DNA from: Sulfurihydrogenibium sp. YO3AOP1
Lineage (GTDB): Bacteria; Aquificota; Aquificia; Aquificales; Hydrogenothermaceae
Length of the DNA: 64,000 bases
Reading direction: 5' to 3'
Assembly (NCBI RefSeq): GCF_000020325.1
Contig: NC_010730.1
Coordinates: 1,261,501 to 1,325,500, forward strand
The notes under the pieces: generated by a model
The model's input: the letters and a program-made list of their open reading frames with translations, nothing else
Databases searched by the model: none
Told to the model about the DNA's origin: nothing
Shown: positions 12,985 to 63,743 of the stretch, in pieces
How the letters are laid out: each line of letters opens with the position of its first letter
How positions within the stretch are numbered: the first letter of the stretch is position 1
Program-made: the position numbers and the translations under genes

Positions 12985-13131
12985 TAGAAACTGCTTGCAA
13001 AATCAACATTATCATTCTGTAGCCGGCAAAGAATCTCTTTTTTACCTCCTCTTACTTTCAAATAACAATAAAAGAGGAGATCCTTCGGCCTTCGGCCTTC
13101 GGCCTCAGGATGACGAAAACATTAATGATGT
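12985..13131. repeat. Dispersed repeat module flanking IS110 copy 1
   Basis: Contains ATCATTCTGTAGCCGGC, AAGAATCTC, a short spacer, and then GAGGAGATCCTTCGG...CCTCAGGATGACG. These are the two inverted ends of the dispersed module. CCTTCGG is repeated three times in tandem at 13081-13104. The sequence then runs into GATGTCATC, where the insertion element starts. Confidence 0.7.
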
Positions 13132-13210
13132 CATCGTATATTAAATATACTAAAAATTTTTTAAACTATAAGAGAATAAGTTTTATAATAATTATAGACA
13201 TGGGAGAAAA

Positions 13211-13357
13211 AAAGAAGGACAGATCAAGTTTCTGTCATTGGTCTTTTAAGACCGATCAGGATGTTTTAGACTGTCCTTCCTCTACTTCCTAAAACCTGAA
13301 TCAGAACATTAGGCTTTTAAGCCTGTATTTAACTACGATGATAGGTTATCAGGAAGT
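13211..13357 (+). ncRNA. Putative bridge RNA of IS110 copy 1
   Basis: Two looped stems can be drawn. Stem 1 pairs GAAGGACAG (13214-13222) with CTGTCCTTC (13271-13279) around an inner hairpin GGTCTTTTAAGACC. Its loop carries TGTCATT (13233-13239) and CAGGATG (13257-13263), which correspond to the left and right sides of the target TGTCATCCTGA. Stem 2 pairs ACTTCCT (13284-13290) with AGGAAGT (13351-13357) around AGGCTTTTAAGCCT. Its loop carries AGAACAT (13303-13309), identical to the element's right end, and TACGATG (13334-13340), the complement of its left end. This is the architecture described for IS110 bridge RNAs. Transcript ends are not known. Confidence 0.8.
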
Positions 13358-13396
13358 TTCTTTCATGTCAAGTATTTTATGAAAGGAGGTACTATT

Positions 13397-14383
13397 ATGA
13401 ACAGCTACAAAATTGTTATAGGAGTTGATGTATCTAAAAACTCATTCACTGCTACAGTTTTGTATGATAACAAGAAAGAAACTTTTGAAGTTAAATCTGA
13501 CCCAGTTGAGTTTGAAATGAAAGTAAAGCCTTACCTTAAGAAGTTTAAAAAGTCAGATATGCTTATCATAATGGAGCATACGGGAGTTTACCATTTAAAG
13601 CTTGCTAATTATCTGTATGAAAATGACTATAAAGTAGCAGTAGTAAATCCATTTTCAATAAAGAAATTTATGGAAGCTAAAATGACAAGAGTTAAAACAG
13701 ATAAAGCTGATTCATTCTTTATAGCAGAGTATGGAAGAACGTTTTTCGATGGAGAGCTTTATAAACCAAAATCAGATGTAGAAAAAGAAATAGAAGTAAA
13801 ACTAAAGATATTGGAAGACTTACAACAGCAGCTTACAATGCTAAGAAACAAAAGAGAATCATTAAGTCATGTACCAATGAAAAAATTGAAAGAGAATTTA
13901 GAATATTACGATGAGCTAATTAGAAAAATAGAAAAAAACATAAAAGAACTTGAGAAAGAGATAAAAGAATTGTCTAAGAAGAATTATCAAGAGGAATACA
14001 AACTTTTAAAAAGCATACCTGGTATAAGTGATAGGACTATAGGAATGATAATATCAGTATATGGAAATTTTGAAAGATTTAAGAGTGTAAAAGATATATC
14101 GAGTTTTATAGGAATTAATCCAAGCCCATATGAAAGTGCAGCATGTGTAAAGAAAAGTGGCTGGATAAAAAAGATGGGAAATCCATATGCAAGGAAAATA
14201 TTATACATGGCAGCATTATCAGCAATAAGGTTTAACAAATACTGCAGAGAATTATACGAAAGATTAGTAAGTAAAGGTAAGGCTAAAAAGTTAGCATTAG
14301 TAGCTGTAGCACATAAGTTATTAAGGCAGGCATATGGTGTATTAAAGAATAAAAGACCATTTGATGAAAATTTTTGTACTTGA
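13397..14383 (+). CDS. IS110-family transposase (DEDD recombinase), copy 1
   Basis: A 328-residue recombinase. The N-terminal RuvC-like domain starts IVIGVDVSKNSFTA and continues with MEHTGVYH and KTDKADS. A coiled-coil region lies at about residues 130-195. The C-terminal Transposase_20 domain begins LLKSIPGISDRTIGMIIS and ends KMGNPYARKILY. The start was chosen behind AAAGGAGGT; an ATG 18 bases upstream overlaps that site. Compared with copy 2, the stretch around the predicted catalytic serine reads NPSPYESAAC instead of SPGIHESGTS. Serine is kept but the neighbouring Gly is lost, so activity is uncertain. Confidence 0.93.
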   Translation: MNSYKIVIGVDVSKNSFTATVLYDNKKETFEVKSDPVEFEMKVKPYLKKFKKSDMLIIMEHTGVYHLKLANYLYENDYKVAVVNPFSIKKFMEAKMTRVKTDKADSFFIAEYGRTFFDGELYKPKSDVEKEIEVKLKILEDLQQQLTMLRNKRESLSHVPMKKLKENLEYYDELIRKIEKNIKELEKEIKELSKKNYQEEYKLLKSIPGISDRTIGMIISVYGNFERFKSVKDISSFIGINPSPYESAACVKKSGWIKKMGNPYARKILYMAALSAIRFNKYCRELYERLVSKGKAKKLALVAVAHKLLRQAYGVLKNKRPFDENFCT

Positions 14384-14397
14384 CATTTAACATAGAA

Positions 14398-14592
14398 CAT
14401 CCTGAGCGTCAGCGAAGAATCTCATTTTTTAAATCAAAAAATCAAAAGAGGAGATCCTTTGGACTTATGTCCTTAGGATAACGAACAAAAGTAAGCTCAT
14501 TTTACGCATACATTATACAACTTGCAAGAATTTTAGAACATCCCTACTCCTTAAAGACTTTAAAATAAATCTAAGTCAATAAGAAGATAGAA
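14398..14592. repeat. Dispersed repeat module on the right side of IS110 copy 1
   Basis: Directly at the element end lies CATCCTGAGCGTCAGCGAAG, then AATCTC, a spacer, and GAGGAGATCCTTTGGACTTA. This is a module with inverted ends. From 14488 a second repeat type follows, with CATACATTATACAACTTGCA and AATTTTAGAACATCCC; it is also seen at 59733-59782 and, inverted, at 36131-36169. Confidence 0.65.
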
Positions 14593-22410: not shown

Positions 22411-22903
22411 TTTAAAAAAATGAGTTTACCTTTTCTCTCATCCTGAGGACATAAGTCCGAAGGATCTCCTCTTTTAGATAAGGTGAGAAAATGAGAGGTA
22501 AAAGGTGGAGATTCTTAGCCGGCAGCAAAATGACAATATTCCAACATTAACTTCCCATTCTCTTCTGTAATGGCGATTCATGAATCGCCCCTGCTCTTCC
22601 ACTTTTCCGCTTTATTTATCATCCCGAGTCCGTAAGTCCGAAAAGGTCTCTTTTTTGATTTTTTTGACTTGAATAGAAAAAAGATGAGATTCTTCGCCGG
22701 CTGCAGAATGAATAAAAAGATTATTTTTTCTAATGCTTATCATTCAACCTTTCTATGTCATCTTAAGGACATAAATCCAAATGGTCTACTACTTAAAAAG
22801 ACAATAAAGAGCATGAGAATTTGGAAGTAAATTATAGTCATCTATAGCCGTACAAAGAGCCATCTGTTTTAACCAAACTCCTCATCCCGAAGTATTACCT
22901 AAC
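22411..22903. repeat. Repeat-filled gap: two modules and a palindrome
   Basis: A well preserved module spans about 22439-22534, from TCATCCTGAGGACATAAGTC to GGCAGCAAAATGACA, with the spacer GGTGAGAAAATGAGAGGTAA. A second, decayed one covers about 22617-22712. The perfect palindrome GGCGATTCATGAATCGCC sits at about 22573-22590. Pieces of a third module follow to 22890. No gene is supported here. Confidence 0.7.
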
Positions 22904-31060: not shown

Positions 31061-31327
31061 AGAGTCAGTGTGTAAGGATATATTCATTTTGCTGATTTCT
31101 CACTAAAAACAATAATAATCTTCTAAAACATCGGGTGAAAAATTGGTGGGCTTCAGACTGTTCCAAAATTCCTATTCTATCACAGGAACGTCCGCTAAGT
31201 AATGACATTTCATTAATTACTACATGTACGGGCAATTCATGAATTGCCCCAACATCAACCTCTCACTTTTAACATCGGTCTGAAGAAACGTGTAATCTGT
31301 TGAATTTCTCACCCGCATATAATTTAA
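31061..31327. repeat. Gap with palindrome and decayed repeat pieces
   Basis: Holds the perfect 20-base palindrome GGGCAATTCATGAATTGCCC at about 31210-31229, a variant of the palindromes at 22.6 and 63.5 kb. Decayed pieces such as GACTGTTCCAAAATTCC match the tails of the dispersed modules. No gene is supported. Confidence 0.6.
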
Positions 31328-36095: not shown

Positions 36096-36482
36096 TTAGC
36101 CCAAACTGCTCCCAGAATGAATAAAGTTTTTGTAAGCTGTAGAATGTCTATGTAGATATAACTTTATCTTTGTTCATCATCCAATAAGTAAAATCTTATT
36201 CTTGAGATCTTATTCTTCAATGATTTTTCAAAAGATTTGTAAGGCTGAGATCCTTCGCTAACGCTCAGAATGACACTTTTGAAAATTCTCTGTCATCCAG
36301 CAGCGAAGTGAAGGATCTCCTCTTTTAATGTCTTTTAAAAGGAAGACAAAAAGAGCAGAGAGATTCTTAGTATGGCTTTAGGAAGACTATAAAAAGTTTA
36401 ATTAATTTTTAGATTTAGTTAAAATTTGAAAGCACTCTCCTAAGTCTTAGATAGATGCTTGATGACTTTTTATTTAATTATA
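36096..36482. repeat. Repeat-filled gap with both repeat types
   Basis: At 36131-36169 the second repeat type is present in inverse orientation, containing GCTGTAGAATG (36136-36146), TCTATGTAGATATAACTTTA. This 11-base piece equals the right target guide of IS110 copy 2. From about 36244 follow module parts GAGATCCTTCGCTAACGCTC, AGAATGACA, then a module from TGTCATCCAGCAGCG to GAGAGATTCTTAG. No gene is supported. Confidence 0.65.
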
Positions 36483-39033: not shown

Positions 39034-39218
39034 CTTGTCCCTCAGTTTTTTAATATTGATTATATTATTGATTATATATTATGAGCAAAAAATTTAACAT
39101 AATTATGAGATCCTCGTTTTGCTTAGAATTCAAACTTCTCACCTATATTGTCATCCTGAGGACTTTGGTCCGAAAGATCACATTTTAAAAATTCTAACAA
39201 CATGGTTTCAATGTCATA

Positions 39219-44097: not shown

Positions 44098-44307
44098 AAA
44101 TTCTTAGCCGACTGCGGAATAGCAATAATATTACCTCTCATCTCCTCATCTCTCGCTGAGGTGTTCCAATTTTAACTAAATCCAAAAATTAATTTAACCT
44201 TTTGATCGTCATTCTGAACGAAGTGAAGAATCTCCTCTCTTTCTTACCTATCACTTACTCACTTTACTTTTTTTTAAAAGAGGAGATCCTTCGGCTTGTA
44301 GCCTCAG
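44098..44307. repeat. Dispersed repeat module next to IS110 copy 2
   Basis: A decayed piece (ATTCTTAGCCGACTGCGGAA) is followed by a full module from about 44207: GTCATTCTGAACGAAGTGAA, GAATCTCCTC, a spacer, GAGGAGATCCTTCGG and CCTCAGGATG. The insertion element begins inside the final inverted end. Without it the end would read CCTCAGGATGACGG. Confidence 0.7.
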
Positions 44308-44325
44308 GATGTTCTATGTTAAATG

Positions 44326-45312
44326 TCAAGTACAAAAATTTTCATCAAATGGTCTTTTGCTTTTTAATACACCATATGCTTGCCTTAATAACTTATGTGC
44401 TACAGCCACTAATGCTAATTTTTTAGCCTTACCTTTACTTACTAATCTTTCGTATAATTCTCTGCAGTATTTGTTAAACCTTATTGCTGATAATGCTGCC
44501 ATGTATAATATTTTCCTTGCATATGGATTTCCCATCTTTTTTATCCAGCCACTTTTCTTTACACTCGTTCCACTTTCATGTATACCCGGACTGATTCCTA
44601 TAAAACTCGATATATCTTTTACACTCTTAAATCTTTCAAAATTTCCATATACTGATATTATCATTCCTATAGTCCTATCACTTATACCAGGTATGCTTTT
44701 TAAAAGTTTGTATTCCTCTTGATAATTCTTCTTAGACAATTCTTTTATCTCTTTCTCAAGTTCTTTTATGTTTTTTTCTATTTTTCTAATTAGCTCATCG
44801 TAATATTCTAAATTCTCTTTCAATTTTTTCATTGGTACATAGGTTAACGATTCTCTTTTGTTTCTTAGCATTGTAAGCTGCTGTTGTAGGTCTTCCAATA
44901 TCTTTAGTTTTACTTCTATTTCTTTTTCTACATCTGATTTTGGTTTATAAAGCTCTCCATCGAAAAACGTTCTTCCATATTCTGCAATAAAGAATGAATC
45001 AGCTTTATCTGTTTTAACTCTTGTCATTTTAGCTTCCATAAATTTCTTTATCGAAAATGGATTTATTACTGCTACATTATAGTCATTTTCATACAGATAA
45101 TTAGCAAGCTTTAAATGGTAAACTCCCGTATGCTCCATTATGATAAGCATATCTGACTTTTTAAACTTCTTCAAAAATGGCTTTACTTTCATTTCAAACT
45201 CAACCGGGTCAGATTTAACTTCAAAAGTTTCTTTCTTGTTATCATACAAAACTGTAGCAGTGAATGAGTTTTTAGATACATCAACTCCTATAACAATTTT
45301 GTAGCTGTTCAT
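44326..45312 (-). CDS. IS110-family transposase (DEDD recombinase), copy 2
   Basis: A 328-residue recombinase almost identical to copy 1 apart from a few single changes and one dense cluster. That cluster, near residue 235, reads SPGIHESGTSVKKSGW, the normal form around the predicted catalytic serine. This copy therefore looks competent. The N-terminal RuvC-like domain (GVDVSKNSFTA, KTDKADS) is intact. The start is behind AAAGGAGGT, as in copy 1. Confidence 0.93.
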   Translation of the reverse strand: MNSYKIVIGVDVSKNSFTATVLYDNKKETFEVKSDPVEFEMKVKPFLKKFKKSDMLIIMEHTGVYHLKLANYLYENDYNVAVINPFSIKKFMEAKMTRVKTDKADSFFIAEYGRTFFDGELYKPKSDVEKEIEVKLKILEDLQQQLTMLRNKRESLTYVPMKKLKENLEYYDELIRKIEKNIKELEKEIKELSKKNYQEEYKLLKSIPGISDRTIGMIISVYGNFERFKSVKDISSFIGISPGIHESGTSVKKSGWIKKMGNPYARKILYMAALSAIRFNKYCRELYERLVSKGKAKKLALVAVAHKLLRQAYGVLKSKRPFDENFCT

Positions 45313-45351
45313 AATAGTACCTCCTTTCATAAAATACTTGACATGAAAGAA

Positions 45352-45499
45352 ACTTCCTGATAACCTATCATCGTAGTTAAATACAGGCTTAAAAGCCTAA
45401 TGTTCTGATTCAGGTTTTAGGAAGTAGAGGAAGGACAGTCTAAAACATTCTACAGCGGTCTTAAAAGACCAATGACAAACACTTGATCTGTCCTTCCTT
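45352..45499 (-). ncRNA. Putative bridge RNA of IS110 copy 2
   Basis: Same two-stem layout as copy 1. The donor loop is identical, with AGAACAT (45406-45400) and TACGATG (45375-45369). The target loop differs: the left guide region reads TTTGTCATT (45479-45471) and the right one GCTGTAGAATG (45456-45446) instead of GATCAGGATG. The right guide therefore specifies CATTCTACAGC, close to the CATTCTGCAGC form of the dispersed repeat, and no longer matches the CATCCTGAG at which this copy sits. Confidence 0.78.
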
Positions 45500-45662
45500 T
45501 TTTCTCCCATGTCTATAATTATTATAAAACTTATTCTCTTATAGTTTAAAAAATTTTTAGTATATTTAATATACGATGACGGAATCAAGGTAAAGTTATA
45601 TTTATATATGTATTTTACAGCTTGCAAAAATTTTTCCGGCACTCTCAGCCTTTCGCCATATT

Positions 45663-50588: not shown

Positions 50589-50960
50589 AAGATTAACCTC
50601 TTAAGTCATTTAAAAATTAGAAATTATAATTTTATCACAATAGAAGTTAAGCTTTTGGTGATAATAGTGTTGAAAAATTTTTGTAAGTTTACTTTTTCTT
50701 GTCATCATGAAGACTTTAGTCCAAAAGATCTTCTTTTTTAAAGAAGGTGAGAAAGTGAATAAGCAAGAGGTAAAAAGGAGGAGATTCTTCGCTTCGCTCA
50801 GAATGACAGAATAGGGGCATGAAGGCTGAGATTGTTCACCGGCTTCAGAATGACGACGTTGATTTTTGGAACAGTCTCATTTTTGATTAATAACCTTAAA
50901 TTTTCATGCTACAATATCTTATCATATATACCAAACTTTAATTTAAGCTTATTGCAAAAA
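50589..50960. repeat. Repeat-filled gap
   Basis: A well preserved module spans about 50703-50810, from GTCATCATGAAGACTTTAGT through GGTGAGAAAGTGAATAAGC to CGCTTCGCTCAGAATGACAG. Further pieces follow (CACCGGCTTCAGAATGACGA, TTGATTTTTGGAACAGTCTC). No gene is supported. Confidence 0.68.
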
Positions 50961-59499: not shown

Positions 59500-59824
59500 A
59501 AGAGTGCTACTAAAAAAATTTAAGATTTATAATTGTATGGGTTATGTTATCGTTTTATATTTGTAAGAAACATTTTATTTTTACTTATTTGTCATTCTGC
59601 AGCCGGTGAAGAATCTCCTACTTTTTGCCTCTACAATGTCATTCTAAGCGTAAGCGAAGAAGCTCCTGTTTTTCTCTTTAAAAGAATAGGAAATCCTTCG
59701 GACTAAAGTTCTCAGAATGAGAGAAAAATGTAAAGTTATATCTACATATACATTCTACAACTTAAAAAATTTTAGAACACTTTCAACCCATCTTAAAAAA
59801 TTGACAAATAAATGAAAAATCTAA
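59500..59824. repeat. Repeat-filled gap with both repeat types
   Basis: About 59592-59720 holds a module: GTCATTCTGCAGCCGGTGAA, GAATCTCCTAC, a second TGTCATTCTAAGCG start, and AATCCTTCGGACTAAAGTTC, TCAGAATGA. From 59733 to 59782 follows the second repeat type (AAAGTTATATCTACATATAC, ATTCTACAACTT, AATTTTAGAACACT). No gene is supported. Confidence 0.68.
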
Positions 59825-61382: not shown

Positions 61383-61775
61383 ATTGCAACTTAATATATA
61401 ATATATATTCAATCATTTCAATAGCTTTTGTATGCAAAACATCATAAATGTAAAGTAAAAAGTAACAAAGATAAGATAAATGTTAACCATACCTCACGAA
61501 GCTTGAGCTACGAATCTACTAAATTTTTCATTGTTTAATGATTTAATATTGGTTGAGAAATTCAATAAAAGTAGGGGATTCTTCCCACGGCTGCAGAATG
61601 ACAAATGAGCTTATTCTTTTTCTGATGCTTATCATTCAACCTTTCGCTATCATTCTGAGGGCTTTAGTCCGAAGAATCTCCTCTTTTGATTTTTTGATTT
61701 GAAAAGAAAAACAGGAGATTCTTCGCTGACGCTCAGAATGACGATGTTGATTTTTGGAACATCCTTTTGTCCTTC
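61383..61775. repeat. Repeat-filled gap
   Basis: The thiC promoter must lie in 61383-61440, but I see no clear boxes. A full module spans about 61648-61742, from ATCATTCTGAGGGCTTTAGT through GGAGATTCTTCGCTGACGCT to CAGAATGACG, with the tail TTGATTTTTGGAACATCC. A partial piece with GGCTGCAGAATGACA lies at about 61588. No gene is supported. Confidence 0.66.
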
Positions 61776-63284: not shown

Positions 63285-63743
63285 GAAGTTTGTTTAAATA
63301 AAGTCTATATCAACTTTATAAATGGTAAACACTATTAATATTTTTCAATTTACTTATTACCATATCCCACCTTGGATGAGAAATTAGTGGTTTATAGAAT
63401 TTAAAAAGAAGATCCTTCGGACCTACGTCCTCAGGATAAAAAATAAAGTGGAAAAGTGTAAGAGTAGGGGGCGATTCATGAATCGCCCTTACGAAAGTAA
63501 AGTTGTAATTCTTAAGCCGTGCGAAGAATCTACTACTTTTATTAAATTTCTCACCTGACATATTTTTTGTTATTATTATATTAATATACGATGACATGTA
63601 TTAGAACACTCTTAATAAAATATCCCAAATTTTTTCTCAATTTTGCAAAAATCAAAAAAGGTTAACTGAGTTTTCAAATGATTTTATCTAAAATTTTAGG
63701 TATAATTTTTGCATATTTTTTATAAAAAAATTTGGAGACGGTC
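63285..63743. repeat. Repeat-filled gap with palindrome and an IS-end-like piece
   Basis: About 63404-63440 holds AAGATCCTTCGGACCTACGT, CCTCAGGAT. The palindrome GGGCGATTCATGAATCGCCC is at about 63469-63488. About 63515-63530 has AAGCCGTGCGAAGAATC. Near 63580-63596, TATTAATATACGATGACATG resembles in inverse orientation the left end of the IS110 elements (GTCATCGTATATTAAATATA). No gene is supported. Confidence 0.6.

What the first reader, a model, noticed from the sequence alone, without database searches (positions are those of the whole stretch)
22439..22534. Dispersed MITE-like module with inverted TGTCATYCTG ends in most gaps
A unit of about 95-115 bases recurs near 640, 13000, 14400, 22440, 22620, 36290, 44210, 50703, 59592 and 61648. 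Each starts TGTCATYCTGA...GGATCTCCTC and ends GAGATTCTTCGC...CAGAATGACA, with a spacer often reading GGTGAGAAAATGAATAAGTG. The ends are inverted repeats, so the RNA would fold as a long hairpin. It occurs only between genes. No transposase with such ends is in the window.
Basis: seen in the sequence. Interest (0 to 1): 0.6.

Follow-up and report, generated by a model that had tools for sequence, protein, structure and literature searches.

The report
REP-like hairpin pairs inside two MITEs
The repeated unit is real: it is a pair of small DNA hairpins that forms the core of two different kinds of 'passenger' transposon in this heat-loving bacterium, serves as the landing site of a third, apparently RNA-guided transposon, and uses a hairpin sequence also found letter for letter in bacteria of about twenty phyla, with no known enzyme of its own.

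Summary
Each end is its own ~28-33 bp hairpin ("arm": unpaired Y-GTC tag, ATYCT/AGRAT stem, GA/GA step, variable inner hairpin). The window's genome has 354 exact arms (reversed control 0), about 840 by extrapolation. Two of six genus relatives also have hundreds; the other four, and 54 further relatives, have essentially none. A second MITE-A carries the pair inside-out (ends GGGTGAGAAATT, 14-39-bp duplications) and shares ends with a distant IS982-like IS whose intact copies make 25-34-bp duplications; comparison with relative G002 gives two clean empty sites. The IS110 element in the window sits in an arm's tag, and its leader carries bridge-RNA-like guides matching the arm. The identical 27-mer occurs in about 20 phyla, at times between other, unrelated inverted ends. 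The arms resemble CGTC-tagged REPs but differ in stem and tail; no RAYT flanks them. Best reading: a REP-like doublet that hitchhikes in successive MITEs; its own mover, if any, is unknown.

The parts
22436..22535 (+). Focal outward doublet: C-type arm 22438-22468 (+), spacer with GGTGAGAAAATGA, T-type arm 22508-22535 (-); a decayed MITE-B core whose outer ends are not recognisable
   Evidence: profile scores 39.1 and 11.6
22571..22590 (.). GCGATTCATGAATCGCC palindrome between two doublets; the same palindrome lies in the ~63-bp inner spacer of MITE-A copies
22617..22711 (+). Second, degenerate outward doublet
13010..13114 (-). Outward doublet (T arm +, C arm -)
13135..14397 (+). IS110-family element, copy B (334-aa transposase 13379-14383), inserted in an arm tag: GTCAT at 13130-13134 before it, CATCCTGAG after it; guide-like motifs in its leader
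14398..14482 (+). Outward doublet split by IS110 copy B
44207..44311 (+). Outward doublet whose C-arm tag is split by IS110 copy A; an outward doublet without IS110 is at the same place in relative G005 (L040)
44312..45575 (-). IS110-family element, copy A (transposase 44326-45330)
50698..50877 (+). Outward doublet 50700-50808, an extra T arm 50828-50854 and a MITE-B end 50864-50877
59590..59783 (-). Outward doublet 59590-59720 and a MITE-B end 59770-59783
61551..61765 (+). Array: MITE-A end 61551-61562, T arm (-), 46-bp-type inner spacer, C arm 61648-61680 (+), T arm 61715-61743 (-), MITE-B end 61752-61765
63374..63556 (-). Complete MITE-A (183 bp): both GGTGAGAAATT-type ends, C arm (-), 63-bp-type inner spacer with the GATTCATGAATC palindrome, degenerate T arm (+)
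39149..39179 (+). C-type arm with a MITE-A-like end motif close by (39133-39144)
36247..36275 (-). T-type arm of a decayed composite

Best explanation
The unit is a doublet of two REP-like DNA hairpins (Y-GTC-tagged, like CGTC REPs) that forms the core of two unrelated non-autonomous transposons. MITE-B carries it tags-outward and shares its ends with decayed IS5-like elements (~10-bp duplications). MITE-A carries it tags-inward and shares its ends with a distant IS982-like IS that makes 25-34-bp duplications. I infer that the two DDE transposases spread the MITEs in trans and that the doublet is a passenger. The two arms of a doublet nearly always differ, which I take to keep each folding on itself rather than forming one perfect long palindrome that would be deleted. 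The tag and outer stem (TGTCAT^YCTGAG) are the target of an IS110 element whose bridge-RNA-like guides read the arm, so copies act as landing pads. Shown: anatomy, end sequences, duplications, two empty sites for MITE-A, a nested insertion for MITE-B, one IS-free site for IS110, IS110 target uniformity, phyletic breadth. Inferred: mobilisation in trans, hairpin formation in cells, selection for unlike arms, bridge-RNA function.
For: 354 exact arms in own genome, control 0. 264 and 278 in G002 and G005, none in four other genus members. Clean MITE-A insertions: G002 L056:9259-9422 against the empty own site, 33-bp duplication; own L021:2695-2880 against the empty G002 site, 26-bp duplication. 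Direct repeats >=14 bp at 15 of 57 MITE-A copies, none in the shuffled-partner control; 25-34 bp at seven intact 953-956-bp IS-A copies in G004, G006 and G043. Parent transposase hits in 12 of 41 genomes, IS982-like at 48 bits. MITE-B: 17 of 35 with short direct repeats, mostly 10-12 bp, against 2 of 35 in the control; a copy nested in the IS-A end in G002 L071 with repeat CCTCCATAGT. IS5-like IS-B remnants with the same ends. Doublets in own: 171 C+T, 8 T+T, 0 C+C. Nearly all IS110 left ends (15 own, 9 relatives) abut GTCAT or a one-base variant, and the true right ends CATYCTGAG or decayed forms. IS110-free site in G005. Stem covariation: T-A 129, C-G 64, mixed 5; cross-phylum partners keep the complement 45 of 58 against 16.3 shuffled.
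Against: Half of the arms (192 of 394) have no recognisable MITE end, so some may have spread otherwise. No clean polymorphic empty site for a MITE-B in ordinary chromosomal DNA was found, only the nested case. IS-B is known only from broken copies. The own IS-A copy encodes 241 aa against ~283 in relatives and may be inactive. T-type arms alone fold no better than shuffled sequence by nearest-neighbour energies. Guide 2 of an IS110 copy does not always match the arm it sits in.
Confidence: 0.78

Rival explanations
1. The doublet is an independently mobile REP/REPIN-like element with its own, still unknown mover (for example an enzyme acting on tagged single-strand hairpins); MITEs are only one of the places it lands in.
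For: The exact 27-mer occurs in about 20 phyla, with the same tag and an outward-doublet preference (out 75, in 24, tandem 8), and at times inside unrelated inverted ends; half of own arms lack MITE ends; tag plus hairpin is what HUH enzymes of the IS200/RAYT kind read.
Against: Own genome has a single Y1 transposase, an IS605 tnpA without arms nearby; none in the six genus relatives, arm-bearing G002 and G005 included; none of 14 Y1 loci in six arm-bearing genomes of other phyla has an arm within the ~1.5 kb held on each side.
Confidence: 0.25
2. The arms are conserved because they work as RNA or DNA elements (transcription termination at convergent genes, mRNA 3' protection, protein binding), and mobility is incidental.
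For: Compensatory stem changes; enrichment in convergent gaps (41 of 73 hold arms, against 34 of 89 divergent and 76 of 349 tandem).
Against: Four genus members lack them; many copies are decayed; convergent bias is also expected from selection against insertion into promoters.
Confidence: 0.12
3. Ordinary MITEs with long imperfect inverted repeats, in which the arm similarity is only the inner part of each MITE's own inverted repeat.
For: Both MITEs are inverted-repeat elements with end-matched parent ISs.
Against: The same arms occur in opposite orientation in two families with unrelated ends, were not seen in the parent ISs, and occur in other phyla with other ends.
Confidence: 0.05

Closest known systems
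CGTC-tagged REPs (Di Nocera et al. 2013, PMC3733652)
   Same: CGTC/TGTC unpaired tag, stem beginning AT, inverted doublets mostly of unlike units, intergenic, no transposase gene flanked by them
   Different: 5-bp outer stem plus GA/GA step plus 2-4-bp inner hairpin instead of an 8-9-bp stem with 4-5-nt loop; tail TCTC instead of CCA; reported there from 5 phyla, Aquificota not among them
IS-derived MITEs, e.g. the Cardinium MITE with an IS982-family parent (PMC9769881)
   Same: Short, no ORF, ends shared with an IS
   Different: Two MITE families with unrelated parents share one REP-like core in opposite orientations; MITE-A duplications are 14-39 bp
REPIN/RAYT systems (PMC2817692, PMC6006769)
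   Same: Tagged hairpin doublets in hundreds of copies
   Different: No RAYT flanks them; the copies with defined boundaries lie in DDE-type MITEs
IS621 and other IS110 elements in REPs (PMC1525189, PMC11208160)
   Same: IS110 inserted in a REP-like palindrome; leader with two guides matching left and right target
   Different: Target is the TGTCAT^YCTGAG arm; guide function inferred from sequence only
IS1202 group (24-29-bp duplications, cited in PMC10045372)
   Same: Very long target duplications
   Different: IS-A transposase is distantly IS982-like, not IS481/IS1202

Membership tests
MITE (IS-derived) | Short, no ORF, inverted ends shared with an IS | tested here: met
   MITE-A and IS-A ends; MITE-B and IS-B ends
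MITE (IS-derived) | Target-site duplications and an empty site | tested here: met
   MITE-A: two empty sites and long repeats. MITE-B: ~10-bp repeats and a nested case
MITE (IS-derived) | Moved in trans by the parent transposase | not testable with these tools
   needs a transposition assay
CGTC-tagged REP | CGTC/TGTC unpaired tag and stem starting AT | tested here: met
CGTC-tagged REP | 8-9-bp stem and 4-5-nt loop | tested here: not met
   5 bp + GA/GA + 2-4 bp; the paper's figure with consensus sequences is not held
CGTC-tagged REP | Tail fitting CCA | tested here: not met
   tail is TCTC
CGTC-tagged REP | Inverted doublets, mostly of unlike units | tested here: met
   171 unlike, 8 like
REPIN/RAYT | RAYT gene in the genome flanked by the repeat | tested here: not met
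IS982 family (parent of MITE-A) | Transposase over the family cut-off | tested here: not met
   NF033520 48 bits, cut-off 130
IS110 (resident IS) | DEDD plus Transposase_20 domains | tested here: met
IS110/IS621-type target guides | Leader guides match left and right target | tested here: met
   TGTCATT and GATCAGGAT/GCTCAGAAT guides, by sequence only; guide 2 is not always matched to the copy's own site

The most novel reading that the evidence does not exclude
A pan-bacterial, nearly sequence-identical hairpin doublet is a hyper-parasite: it travels by being captured in, or inserting itself into, the MITEs of many unrelated transposon families across phyla, or by an undiscovered enzyme of its own, and keeps its two hairpins unlike so that they cannot pair with each other.
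Probability: 0.3. Interest if true: 0.85.

Novelty: new variant of a known kind. Interest (0 to 1): 0.62.

Why it matters
CGTC-type REPs were described in 2013 as lacking any dedicated transposase, and how they spread was left open. Here is a concrete route: a REP-like doublet carried as the core of end-defined MITEs with identifiable parent ISs. A patchy invasion (three of seven genus members) makes it testable by comparing strains. The exact 27-mer in some twenty phyla, the rule that paired arms differ, and the doublet's place inside unrelated inverted ends elsewhere suggest a general phenomenon. The arm as an apparently guided IS110 target links it to bridge-RNA recombination, and the long duplications of the IS982-like IS-A are unusual.

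Tried and rejected
RAYT/IS200 as mover: one unrelated IS605 in own, none in six genus relatives, 14 Y1 loci elsewhere without arms. Genes flanked by opposed arms at 0.3-2.6 kb in other phyla: few, and by eye ordinary metabolic genes, no transposase. TGTCATYCTG as the true transposon end: rejected by the MITE ends and empty sites. Long RNA hairpin or terminator as the main function: focal-strand folding modest, z -1.9. Motif strings in papers: first search swamped by primers, second none. A joined-flank query was built but not run, for its length.

Full report
Observation. The module at 22436-22535 is real. The 354 exact arms in the genome against 0 in the reversed control, and about 840 by profile (394 in 864 kb), put chance out of question. 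The genome is one contig of 1,838,442 bases, which fits Sulfurihydrogenibium (Aquificota) from memory; S. yellowstonense SS-5 contigs in the named collection (L189, L201) carry the same two elements.

Anatomy. The stem covaries: T-A 129, C-G 64, mixed 5. T-type arms (ATTCT/AGAAT, short inner part) and C-type arms (ATCCT/AGGAT, long inner part) pair almost only with each other: 94 outward and 77 inward C+T pairs, 8 T+T, none C+C. The same rule shows in the rows I read by eye for genome G067 (record 'Bacterium HR16'; about 25 of 25 outward pairs join an AGAAT with an AGCAT arm) and a Bacteroides genome (4 of 4). Di Nocera et al. (PMC3733652) noted the preference for unlike partners and suggested escape from cleavage of long palindromes; that remains inference.

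Two MITEs. Flanks of outward doublets share outer ends GAGASTGTTCCAAAA some 20-60 bp from the C arm and 10-50 bp from the T arm. Paired ends enclose about 140-240 bp, with short direct repeats at 17 of 35 (mostly 10-12 bp, nine at exactly the same offset) against 2 of 35 for shuffled partners. In G002 one copy sits inside the end of IS-A with CCTCCATAGT on both sides, while other IS-A ends are uninterrupted. Inward doublets lie in an element of mostly 135-190 bp with GGGTGAGAAATT ends. Two clean presence/absence cases between own and G002 give 33-bp and 26-bp duplications. Across 57 copies 15 have direct repeats of 14-39 bp; the shuffled-partner control reaches 11 at most.

Parents. IS-A, with the same ends, encodes a DDE transposase of ~283 aa (241 in own) distantly like IS982. 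Intact 953-956-bp copies in G004, G006 and G043 have 25-34-bp duplications at seven of ten copies. G004, G006 and G043 have IS-A but no arms, so IS-A does not need arms. IS-B, about 800 bp with MITE-B ends and an IS5-like fragment, is broken in the copies seen. The exact MITE-B end motif is present 27, 75 and 35 times in own, G002 and G005 and at most stray elsewhere. G001-G006 lack any Y1 transposase.

IS110. Two copies lie in the window (96% identical). Left ends in own and relatives abut (T)GTCAT and right ends CATYCTGAG, with few decayed exceptions, so insertion is within the arm tag. Relative G005 has an outward doublet without the IS at the place of the window's 44207 doublet. The leader holds TGTCATT, a GGTCTTTTAAGACC stem, then GATCAGGAT, GCTCAGGAT, GCTCAGAAT or GCTGTAGAAT, i.e. 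the left target and the reverse complement of the right, an arrangement like that of the IS621 bridge RNA (PMC11208160). Tobes and Pareja (PMC1525189) showed REPs as IS targets before.

Beyond the genus. Doublets are mostly outward (75, 24 inward, 8 tandem). Partner arms found by their left half only keep a complementary right half in 45 of 58 (16.3 expected). Of 84 outward doublets 18 have flanking inverted repeats of score >=10 against 0.7 expected; four of these are other arms, one is Sulfurihydrogenibium itself and one or two are low-complexity, leaving about a dozen with other end sequences (such as L113, L125, L154, L162, L186, L204, L217). Some flanks recur at a second locus (L125/L129, L154/L177, L186/L187, L146/L181). 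Target duplications were not tested there.

Verdict. Filing: IS-derived MITEs with a REP-like core. Not filed as a CGTC REP family, since the stem and tail tests were not met, nor as REPIN/RAYT, since no RAYT flanks it.

Noticed in passing
window 13135-14397 and 44312-45575: Two IS110 copies with readable, copy-specific guide motifs in their leaders; guides differ between copies and could be used to track retargeting.
   Followed up: partly
window 22571-22590, 31230-31249, 63469-63488: A second dispersed palindrome, GGGCGATTCATGAATCGCCC, recurs alone and inside the MITE-A spacer.
   Followed up: no
window 31133-31314: A MITE-A-sized element with both GGGTGAGAAATT-type ends but no full arms; it holds a MITE-B end fragment and the GATTCATGAATC palindrome.
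   Followed up: no
L076, L078, L079, L086, L088, L089, L094: IS982-like IS with unusually long (25-34 bp) target duplications, 22 matches in one genome of the same order (G043).
   Followed up: partly
L009:1-1900: The only Y1 transposase of the genome, an IS605-type tnpA beside what looks like tnpB, not associated with arms.
   Followed up: yes
L254, L260-L266 (G065): A deltaproteobacterial genome with eight divergent Y1-type matches, none near arms.
   Followed up: no
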